Shown here: in pieces, positions 7,661-9,310 of the stretch
Layout: each line of letters starts with the position of its first letter
How positions within the stretch are numbered: the stretch's first letter is position 1
Assembly: GCA_030609125.1 (NCBI GenBank)
Contig: JAUWCW010000055.1
Span: 1-9,310 of the forward strand
Length of the DNA stretch: 9,310 nt
Direction of reading: 5' to 3'
Source: JAUWCW01 sp030609125 [NCBI: Candidatus Rokuibacteriota bacterium]
GTDB lineage: Bacteria > JAUVQV01
The notes under the pieces: model-generated
Databases searched by the model: none
What the model was told of the DNA's origin: nothing
The model's input: only the letters and a program-made list of their open reading frames with translations
Position numbers and translations under genes: made by a program

Positions 7661-8458
7661 GTGCTTTTTGTCATCGATGTAGGGAACACGCACATACACC
7701 TCGGTGTGTTCCGCAAAGACGAACTCGTCGCCCACTGGGACGTGTCGAACGACGGGAGCCGCACGGTGGACGAGTTGGGGCTGCTCCTCAAGAGCCTCCT
7801 TGCGGAGAGCGGCCTCGCGGCGGAGGAACTGACGGGAGTGTCGGCAGCGTGTGTCGTGCCGCCTGTGTGCGCCACCATTGAGGCCGCCTTTCGAAAGTAC
7901 TTCGGTCTGAAACCCTTTTTTGCGGGACCCGAGACGGAGAGGAAAATCCTGGAGAGCTTCGATGACCCCAGGGAGGTTGGTGCGGACAGGATTGCCAATG
8001 CCGTGGGGGGCTTTCACAGATACGGCGGTCCGCTCATCGTCGTGGACTTCGGGACGGCGACGACCTTCGACGCCATCGCGGCGGACGGGAGCTACCTGGG
8101 GGGCGCCATCGCCCCCGGTCTGGCCATATCGATCGAGGCCCTCTTCAAAAGGGCGGCACGGCTTCCCAGGATCGAGCTTGTCCGCCCGCCACGGGCTGTG
8201 GCGCAGGATACCGTCTCGGGCATGCAGGCGGGAATCATCTTCGGCTACGCCGGTCTCGTGGAAATGCTGGTCCGAAGAATACGGCGTGAAATAGGGGAGG
8301 AGGCCGAAGTGGTTGCCACGGGAGGGATGGCCGAGCTCATTGTCAGGGAGACGGGGATCGTCGAAAAGGTTGACCCGCACCTCACCCTCGAGGGGCTGAG
8401 GCTCATTTTCGAAAGAAGAGGCGGGGCACGTACCCTCCCTGCGGGCGGGGACAATTAA
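7661..8458 (+). CDS. coaX: Type III pantothenate kinase
   Basis: A 265-aa protein of the acetate-kinase/Hsp70/actin-like fold, phosphorylating pantothenate in the first committed step of coenzyme A synthesis. Motifs: N-terminal FVIDVGNTHIHLGVF with D-x-GNT (residues 6-10), VGADRIANAVGGFHRYGGPL (106-125), VVDFGTATTFDAI (127-139) with catalytic-type Asp129, GGAIAPGLAIS (147-157), DTVSGMQAGIIFGYAG (183-198) and ATGGMA (219-224). Length is slightly above the usual 255-260. The GTG start at 7661 is preceded by AGGAGG (7651-7656), five bases away; this purine run begins at the last base of the birA stop. It is the last gene of the valS-nadC-birA-coaX unit. The next promoter's -35 begins three bases beyond its stop. 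Confidence 0.97.
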   Translation: MLFVIDVGNTHIHLGVFRKDELVAHWDVSNDGSRTVDELGLLLKSLLAESGLAAEELTGVSAACVVPPVCATIEAAFRKYFGLKPFFAGPETERKILESFDDPREVGADRIANAVGGFHRYGGPLIVVDFGTATTFDAIAADGSYLGGAIAPGLAISIEALFKRAARLPRIELVRPPRAVAQDTVSGMQAGIIFGYAGLVEMLVRRIRREIGEEAEVVATGGMAELIVRETGIVEKVDPHLTLEGLRLIFERRGGARTLPAGGDN

Positions 8459-8461
8459 TCG

Positions 8462-8491
8462 TTGACAGCCGCGAGCAAAGCGGGATATAAA
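8462..8491 (+). promoter_or_regulatory. Sigma70-type promoter for the stand-alone receiver gene
   Basis: TTGACA (8462-8467), an 18-bp spacer, then TATAAA (8486-8491). It starts three bases after the coaX stop. The expected start near 8498 gives a leader of about 25 bases containing AGGAG (8512-8516), seven bases before the GTG at 8524. This makes the receiver gene an independent unit. Confidence 0.75.
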
Positions 8492-8523
8492 CTATAGCTA
8501 CGGCAAGAGGCAGGAGTAGCGGC

Positions 8524-8892
8524 GTGGAGGGTAAGAGGAAGGTACTCATCGTGGACGACGACCGGGACATAGTCTCGATCGTATCGACTATTCTCGCCGG
8601 GAGAGGATGGGACATTTCGGCCGCCTACAGCGGGTCGGAGGCGCTGGAGGCGGTGACGGCCTCCAAACCCGACATCATCCTTCTGGATATCATGATGCCC
8701 GAGATGAACGGCATCGAAGTGCTGAAGAAAATCCGAAAAATCGACAGCGATGCCCGGATCATCATGATCACCGCTTTCGGAGACGTCGAATCCTATCTTG
8801 ACTCGATGGAGCTCGGTGCCTACGAATACATCAACAAGCCCTTCGAGACAGACGAACTGCTCGAGATGATCGACCGCGTAGCCGCGGTCTGA
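8524..8892 (+). CDS. Stand-alone CheY/Spo0F-like response regulator
   Basis: A 122-aa protein that is a single receiver domain with no output domain. All signature residues are present: acidic pocket in VLIVDDDRD (Asp11-Asp12-Asp13), phospho-acceptor Asp55 in SKPDIILLDIMMPEMNG, switch Thr83 in IIMITAFGDVES, and Lys105 in YINKPFETDEL. The DIMMPEMNG and ITAFGDVES style is close to Spo0F/NtrC-type receivers. Such proteins act as phosphorelay intermediates or bind targets directly. No histidine kinase lies in the window, so partner and process are unknown. The GTG start at 8524 is supported by AGGAG at 8512-8516 and by the domain beginning immediately. It has its own promoter upstream. In contrast to the 2063-3319 receiver, its switch Thr is intact. 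Confidence 0.93.
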   Translation: MEGKRKVLIVDDDRDIVSIVSTILAGRGWDISAAYSGSEALEAVTASKPDIILLDIMMPEMNGIEVLKKIRKIDSDARIIMITAFGDVESYLDSMELGAYEYINKPFETDELLEMIDRVAAV

Positions 8893-8910
8893 CCGCTTCC
8901 TCATATTTTT
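8884..8910 (+). terminator. Possible weak rho-independent terminator of the receiver gene
   Basis: GCGGT, loop CTG, ACCGC (8884-8896) spans the receiver-gene stop codon. It is followed by the T-rich tract TTCCTCATATTTTT, ending in five T at 8906-8910. The stem is only 5 bp and the T-run is interrupted, so strength is uncertain. Confidence 0.4.
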
Positions 8911-8921
8911 CCAGGATCCGC

Positions 8922-8936
8922 GGGCCCTAAGGGCCC
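8922..8936. repeat. 15-bp near-perfect palindrome at the left tip of the element
   Basis: GGGCCCTAAGGGCCC has 7-base arms around one central A. As a hairpin it gives GGGCCC with a TAA loop. No T-run follows on either strand, so it is unlikely to be an intrinsic terminator. It looks as if two copies of the repeat tip face each other here, which hints at a nested or end-to-end insertion. Confidence 0.6.
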
Positions 8937-8993
8937 ACGCAAGAATAACTTCCCATTTTCGCATCTCATCTTCAGGCCGTCTTTGGCCGATCC

Positions 8994-9134
8994 TCAATCA
9001 CGAAATCCTCGAAATAGCCCGCTATTCCTGCGGTTTCGTGCCGCGAAGCAAATGCCCTTGGGGTGCTCATTCAGATCGACCAAATACGACCTGAATCTGA
9101 GCGCGAATTCTGTGAACTTGTTCTTGCGCGGGCC
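8994..9134 (-). pseudogene. Open stretch following the PIN stop in the same frame; no recognised family
   Basis: Reading leftward on the minus strand, the frame directly after the PIN-gene stop (TAG, 9137-9135) stays open for 46 codons to a TGA at 8996-8994. The predicted residues include KFTEFALRFRSYLVDLNEHP and GICFAARNRRNSGLFRGFRD. It has no start codon of its own with a ribosome site, and it lies wholly in the repeat-like element. I recognise no domain. It could be a decayed coding segment carried by the repeat or a chance open frame in a short interval. Confidence 0.25.
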
Positions 9135-9310
9135 CTAAGTCAACAATTTCACATTCGGCAGGTCCAGGTAATCTGAATCGGACGTTATTACCTTGCAGCG
9201 ATGGCTGAGAGCGACGGCATATACCACGGCATCAGCCATGGCCAGATTGTATTGAAGGGCGACGTCAGCGGCCTGAAGCGCGCCAGTCTCGTCAAGATCT
9301 ATCACTTCGG
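9135..9310 (-). CDS. PIN-domain (VapC-like) protein, C-terminal part (5' end beyond right edge)
   Basis: On the minus strand, a frame entering from the right edge encodes 58 full codons ending at TAG (9137-9135). It includes AADVALQYNLAMADAVVYAV, ALSHRCKVITSDSDYLDLPN and VKLLT. This is the C-terminal half of a PIN-domain fold: helix, 'MADAVVYAVA' with the third acidic residue, and 'ITSDSDY' with the last acidic residues. PIN proteins are Mg-dependent ribonucleases; short ones of about 130 aa are usually VapC toxins paired with a VapB antitoxin just upstream. Here the N-terminal half and any vapB would lie to the right, outside the window. The visible sequence is undisrupted. The stop codon sits inside the tip of the adjacent repeat element, so the C-terminal end may have been set by that insertion. 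Confidence 0.8.
   Translation of the reverse strand, partial: EVIDLDETGALQAADVALQYNLAMADAVVYAVALSHRCKVITSDSDYLDLPNVKLLT

What the first reader, a model, noticed from the sequence alone, without database searches (positions are those of the whole stretch)
8920..9139. About 220-bp structured element with terminal inverted repeats, no transposase and no known family
The two ends match in inverted orientation over about 21-28 bp (18/21 in the core) and also share a 12-bp direct word. The interior is a set of nested hairpins, and base composition shifts away from the neighbouring genes. This is the one stretch the gene annotation does not explain. It may be a MITE-like or dispersed repeat, or a structured RNA locus.
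Basis: seen in the sequence. Interest (0 to 1): 0.6.

Follow-up and report, generated by a model that had tools for sequence, protein, structure and literature searches.

The report
Dispersed hairpin mini-transposon, cross-phylum MITE family
The 205-base stretch is one copy of a small jumping DNA element with no transposase gene of its own, present in about two dozen places in this genome and, in related forms, in bacteria of other phyla; it is a new family of a well-known kind of element, and the enzyme that moves it was not found.

Summary
The element proper is 8931-9135 (205 bp), flanked by a 3-bp target duplication, TAA. Its ends match inversely at 18 of 21 (best of 200 shuffles: 16). The genome holds 15 near-full-length and 9 partial places, with abrupt ends and unrelated flanks. 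Over 40 two-ended copies the 3-bp flanks are identical in 19 against 9.9 expected (p=1.5e-4); target C|TWA|G. Arms co-vary along the hairpin: 44 two-sided cells against 14.7 shuffled. This is a non-autonomous MITE-type transposon. The parent was not found: Transposase_29 (PF21804) first looked like it, but is a separate IS with its own ends that inserts into these elements; a nearby RAYT-type gene is probably unrelated. No Rfam match.

The parts
8931..9135 (.). MITE-type element, this copy 205 bp (the other 13 two-ended copies tabulated in the genome are 178-179 bp)
   Evidence: alignment of 20 places of the genome, abrupt ends; limits by end matching
8931..8951 (+). left terminal inverted repeat
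   Evidence: 18/21 to right end
9115..9135 (-). right terminal inverted repeat
   Evidence: 18/21 to left end
8928..8930 (.). target site duplication TAA, left
   Evidence: 19 of 40 copies identical vs 9.9 expected
9136..9138 (.). target site duplication TAA, right
8919..8927 (.). CGCGGGCCC, same as the element's own right end: probable remnant of an older abutting copy (inferred)
   Evidence: direct word; longer remnants abut copies L002 (about 50 bp) and L102 (about 16 bp)
9038..9064 (.). 27-bp extra stretch near the hairpin loop, absent from the other 13 aligned copies of the genome
   Evidence: alignment A2
8524..8892 (+). neighbour: response regulator receiver protein, 122 aa (not part of the element)
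   Evidence: PF00072, E 1e-32
9135..9310 (-). neighbour: C-terminal part of a PIN-domain protein (VapC-like by recall); its TAG stop uses two bases of the duplication and the element's last base
   Evidence: PF01850, E 3.8e-9; reading frame

Best explanation
A non-autonomous, MITE-type DNA transposon. A transposase encoded elsewhere (now or formerly) recognises the ~20-bp ends GGGYYCRCGCAAGAATAA. It inserts the element at C|TWA|G with duplication of the 3-bp TWA, as a DDE cut-and-paste enzyme would. Shown: multiple copies, precise ends, 3-bp duplication, target preference, presence in other genomes including MAGs named as Gemmatimonadota and Planctomycetota, and a hairpin along the whole element with compensatory changes. 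Inferred: trans-mobilisation, cut-and-paste, horizontal spread, and the type of parent (IS5/PHIS-like by its target site). The hairpin may be kept because it is part of the transposition substrate or because it makes insertions at gene 3' ends tolerable. Arm-to-arm correction of quasi-palindromes during replication could produce the same pattern without selection.
For: 15 near-full-length and 9 partial places in the genome; abrupt ends and unrelated flanks. The end pattern with up to 1 mismatch gave 33 hits in the genome, 0 for the reversed control. The exact end pattern is in 4 of 386 genomes, reversed control 0. Homologue of 76% identity over 1-187 in a Gemmatimonadota MAG, and the same ends in a Planctomycetota MAG; 22 copies of three genomes align over the whole length. 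3-bp flanks identical in 19 of 40 copies vs 9.9, p=1.5e-4; no excess at 1, 2 or 4-8 bp; among 21 with TWA on both sides 18 identical vs 11.2, p=0.005. Covariation: A2 score 0.179 vs 0.084, 44 vs 14.7 two-sided cells, slid controls 26-39% paired vs 95.8%; A1 score 0.075 vs 0.050, 14 vs 5.2 two-sided cells. Short forms of 40, 87, 90 and 98 bp keep both ends.
Against: No transposase with these ends was found: PF21804 is absent from this genome, its order-mate and the Planctomycetota one; PF07592 is absent from the same three, with one fragment in the Gemmatimonadota genome whose ends were not examined; the only PF01609 locus here (C91, two matches) lacks the ends. Many other transposase families were not searched. 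21 of 40 copies do not have identical 3-bp flanks. Two covariation measures do not stand out: number of co-varying pairs (32 of 500 and 115 of 500 shuffles as high) and further pair types (216 and 500 of 500). No empty-site allele was available: the phylum has one other genome held, with no copy. No insertion polymorphism is shown, so present activity is unproven.
Confidence: 0.88

Rival explanations
1. It is a structured RNA gene or cis-regulatory RNA family kept at gene ends, with dispersal secondary.
For: Strong fold on both strands; compensatory changes; in 15 of 36 copies an open frame of 100 or more codons ends at the duplication, vs 26 of 178 other TWA sites in the flanks (Fisher p 7e-4).
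Against: No Rfam match even at E 1; no terminator-like site and one weak promoter-like site, inside the neighbouring gene; the reading frames beside the copies differ (frame scan only, genes not named); 3-bp duplication and sharp ends fit insertion. For the true target, CTWAG, only 4 control sites exist (1 positive), so the gene-end bias is not tested against it.
Confidence: 0.15
2. It is a REP/REPIN-like or TIRYT-type repeat moved by a Y1 (RAYT-type) transposase.
For: A Y1 gene (PF01797 over its cut-off; NCBIfam REP-associated tyrosine transposase below its cut-off) lies about 200 bp from a truncated copy on contig C288; only 2 Y1 loci in the genome.
Against: The element has a 3-bp duplication, two inverted ends and no GTAG or CGTC tag at them. 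The gene has other words around it: GGGGTCAGGCAC on one side, which fits the GGGGWSAS motif of TIRYT genes, and GGTGTGTCCC on the other, which does not fit it exactly (sequence; passages). The copy beside it lacks its first 33 bases.
Confidence: 0.06
3. It is the non-autonomous partner of the Transposase_29 (PF21804) insertion sequence found in the Gemmatimonadota genome.
For: Five IS ends there abut the element's terminal repeat, one of them on a 14-bp IS remnant; 2 of the 4 genomes with the exact end have PF21804, which is in 7 of 386.
Against: In two other genomes PF21804 elements end in CAGGGCTCCTGA or CAGACTTCCTGA with AAGTT on both sides and without this terminal repeat; in a third (L188) the ends are CAGAGGTC.. 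with no duplication seen. In the Gemmatimonadota copy L123 one side is the outer 21 bases of the element and the other side AACTT followed by about 40 bases of its interior: a nested insertion. PF21804 is absent from this genome and the Planctomycetota one.
Confidence: 0.04

Closest known systems
Bacterial MITEs in general (Correia/NEMIS, ERIC, RUP, QMITE, Chunjie)
   Same: under 500 bp, no coding capacity, terminal inverted repeats, target duplication, stem-loop, mostly intergenic, size variants (PMC10969869, its sections 2 and 3 read; PMC3733652, passages)
   Different: terminal sequence not found in the text library; no alignment with those families was run; target C|TWA|G; full-length palindrome with homologues in other genomes
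PIF/Harbinger and NuwaII (PHIS superfamily) and bacterial IS5
   Same: 3-bp TWA (PIF/Harbinger) or C|TNA|G (NuwaII) duplication (PMC4482050, passages)
   Different: those with this target are eukaryotic; the paper gives ANT for bacterial IS5; no transposase was found here, so kinship is only suggested by the target
REPIN/RAYT and TIRYT repeats
   Same: palindromic, dispersed, partly near gene ends (PMC3733652, passages)
   Different: no GTAG tag at the ends; has a duplication; longer than REPs; different ends

Membership tests
MITE (class) | short, no transposase gene | tested here: met
   205 bp; one search lists one frame (8455-8997, -) that begins in it and runs antisense through the response regulator gene; that frame was not searched against families
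MITE (class) | terminal inverted repeats conserved among copies | tested here: met
MITE (class) | target site duplication | tested here: met
   3 bp, 19 of 40 vs 9.9, p 1.5e-4
MITE (class) | empty-site alleles | not testable with these tools
   only one other genome of the phylum is held, without copies
MITE (class) | parent IS with the same ends | tested here: inconclusive
   PF01797, PF01609, PF07592, PF21804 searched in this genome; none fits; other families not searched
Transposase_29 (PF21804) IS derivative | same terminal repeat as the IS | tested here: not met
   IS ends are CAG..TCCTGA-like with a 5-bp duplication
REP/REPIN of RAYT | terminal GTAG tag | tested here: not met
   ends are GGG..CCC with a TWA duplication
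PHIS/IS5 superfamily derivative | DDE transposase of that superfamily with the same ends | not tested
   only PF01609 was searched, and only in this genome; the target site alone agrees
Rfam RNA family | covariance model match | tested here: not met
   0 matches, gathering and E up to 1

The most novel reading that the evidence does not exclude
A cross-phylum family of hairpin mini-transposons moved by an unrecognised bacterial transposase with the C|TWA|G target of eukaryotic NuwaII/Harbinger elements, in which the whole-length hairpin (not only the ends) is under selection as transposition substrate or as an RNA at gene 3' ends.
Probability: 0.25. Interest if true: 0.55.

Novelty: new member of a known kind. 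Interest (0 to 1): 0.36.

Why it matters
It gives a defined family (ends, target, hairpin) with full copies in four genomes, at least two of them of other named phyla, and homologous interiors in two of the three others. That makes it a marker of DNA movement between distant bacteria and a handle for finding the missing transposase. The compensatory changes along a 180-bp palindrome raise the testable question of whether hairpins of MITEs are selected or merely copied from arm to arm by replication.

Tried and rejected
Parent = Transposase_29 IS: held for a while (note) on a shared 22-bp end, rejected after the ends in two other genomes showed a different terminal repeat and a 5-bp duplication (note). 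Parent = ISAzo13-type: PF07592 absent from this genome and the Planctomycetota one; one fragment in the Gemmatimonadota genome, not examined further. Parent = PF01609: one locus, C91, without these ends. Parent = RAYT on C288: flanking words differ. An end on G121:C67 with a non-palindromic interior showed no convincing partner end in the 6 kb fetched (only matches with 4-6 substitutions); its reading frames were only listed, not searched against families.

Chance hits: 3 of the 5 genome-contig hits (L085, L088, L089) lack matching outer ends and were dropped. Viral contigs gave nothing; plasmids and phages nothing. An exact 31-mer gave 0 in genome contigs. No solved structure matches the PF21804 protein by sequence.

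Rows dropped: from the duplication count, truncated and contig-end copies, among them C53 and C343 (by a shared variant probably one copy split over two contigs), C208, C298, C288, C139, C346, C21 and single ends in the other genomes. Alignment A1 used 12 of the 13 Planctomycetota copies (L111, with a large insert, left out). A2 used all 14 of this genome, 5 of 9 Gemmatimonadota and 3 of 4 G151 copies of the table. Searches used 36 of the 40 copies (L015, L158, L161 and the short one of L123 left out).

A reading that copies target stop codons is only partly controlled.

Full report
What was claimed. A ~220-bp stretch at 8920-9139 with inverted ends, a repeated 12-bp word, nested hairpins and no gene.

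Check. The word is 13 bp, CGCGGGCCCTAAG, at 8919-8931 and 9127-9139. The inverted ends match 18 of 21; the best of 200 shuffles was 16. The stretch folds as one long hairpin on either strand, z -6.3 and -8.6. No Rfam family matches.

Copies in the genome. A search of the window's own draft genome (2.3 Mb, 376 contigs) with the stretch and then with a 187-nt majority form gave 15 near-full-length and 9 partial places (two of them, C53 and C343, are probably one copy split over contig ends). Several others also sit at contig ends. Aligned with flanks, the copies start and stop at the same two points and the flanks are unrelated. The window copy is 205 bp from GGG to CCC, the other 13 tabulated 178-179 bp; it has 27 more bases near the loop.

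Other genomes. Of 60 genomes searched with the DNA, only the own genome matched, and the phylum holds only one other genome, without copies. A paired-end pattern in the collection of 84,980 species genomes gave 5 hits. Two extend to the outer ends: a Gemmatimonadota MAG (NYZA01000108.1, 76% over the whole length) and a Planctomycetota MAG (JAJRPF010000069.1, same ends, other interior). The ends recur in both: 25 pattern hits in the Planctomycetota and 13 in the Gemmatimonadota genome with up to 1 mismatch, reversed control 0. The exact end occurs in 4 of 386 genomes of a broad sample: the own one; G121, which by contig coordinates and size is the Gemmatimonadota MAG itself; G151; and G058, where a single end without a partner was seen in 1.8 kb. 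In G151 the copies are again homologous to the window family; 22 copies of three genomes align from end to end.

Insertion. I tabulated 40 copies with both ends (14 of this genome, 13 Planctomycetota, 9 Gemmatimonadota, 4 of G151). The three bases on either side are identical in 19, against 9.9 when right flanks are shuffled within each genome (p 1.5e-4); lengths of 1, 2 and 4-8 show no excess. Of 21 copies with TTA or TAA on both sides, 18 agree (11.2 expected, p 0.005). Two other copies abut longer remnants of such an end (L002, about 50 bp; L102, about 16 bp), so I infer an older copy at the same site.

Hairpin. On the 22-row alignment a consensus structure of 38 pairs is formed in 95.8% of cells. 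Nine pairs change on both sides, in 44 cells against 14.7 in shuffles (sd 2.9), and sliding one arm by 1-3 columns drops pairing to 26-39%. The Planctomycetota family, with another interior, shows four such pairs, 14 cells against 5.2. Two measures do not stand out: the number of co-varying pairs (32 of 500 and 115 of 500 shuffles as high) and the number of further pair types (216 and 500 of 500). The sequences are related, so the counts are not independent events. Selection on the hairpin and arm-to-arm copying during replication are both open.

Where copies sit. In 15 of 36 copies an open frame of at least 100 codons ends in a stop codon overlapping the duplication, against 26 of 178 other TWA sites in the same flanks (p 7e-4). 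Of the true target CTWAG there were only 4 control sites, 1 of them positive (p 0.64), so the bias is not settled. One such gene ends ...TIEWE and is by recall a GMP synthase (L011).

The search for the parent. In the Gemmatimonadota genome a ~2.4-kb element with PF21804 (Transposase_29) and an HTH reading frame seemed to carry the same outer 22 bases, and I first took it for the parent. In two other genomes PF21804 elements end in CAG..TCCTGA with AAGTT on both sides; in a third the ends are CAGAGGTC.. without a visible duplication. In the Gemmatimonadota copy L123 the outer 21 bases of the mini-element are on one side and AACTT plus about 40 bases of its interior on the other. So it is an IS that uses the AACTT inside the mini-element's ends as a landing site. 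It is absent here and in the Planctomycetota genome. The parent stays unknown. By target site alone, the IS5/PHIS superfamily is the best guess (PMC4482050, passages seen), though that paper gives ANT, not TWA, for bacterial IS5.

Literature. A text search for four 13-letter forms of the end gave 0 papers. Searches on MITEs, targets, Gemmatimonadetes, Planctomycetes and the PF21804 name gave listings in which I saw no description of this family (listings only, most papers not opened). Subscription papers and ISfinder were not searchable. I read sections 2 and 3 of PMC10969869 and passages of PMC4482050 and PMC3733652.

Verdict. A real MITE family, not found in the libraries searched; an ordinary kind of thing, with two less ordinary traits: the cross-phylum homology and the full-length hairpin with compensatory changes.

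Noticed in passing
L123:1505-3945, L124:1-1857, L185:2616-4937, L186:1336-3756: PF21804 (Transposase_29) insertion sequences have ends CAGRSYTCCTGA and an AAGTT/AACTT duplication in three genomes (not in a fourth, L188); in the Gemmatimonadota MAG five of their ends abut the mini-element's terminal repeat, which holds an AACTT. No NCBIfam transposase model matched the 572-aa protein.
   Followed up: partly
L100:1491-1536: A 40-bp hairpin made of the two ends with almost nothing between, flanked by TAA on both sides: the smallest form of the family seen.
   Followed up: no
L071:600-2080 (G000 contig C288): A 328-aa Y1 transposase (PF01797 over its cut-off) with matches below cut-off to REP-associated tyrosine transposase and to a DnaA C-terminal domain, with GGGGTCAGGCAC on one side, beside a truncated copy of the element.
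   Followed up: partly
window 9135-9310: PIN-domain gene fragment whose stop codon TAG is formed by two bases of the duplication and one of the element.
   Followed up: partly
window 9038-9064: 27 bases near the loop present in the window copy and in none of the other 13 aligned copies of the genome; origin unknown.
   Followed up: no
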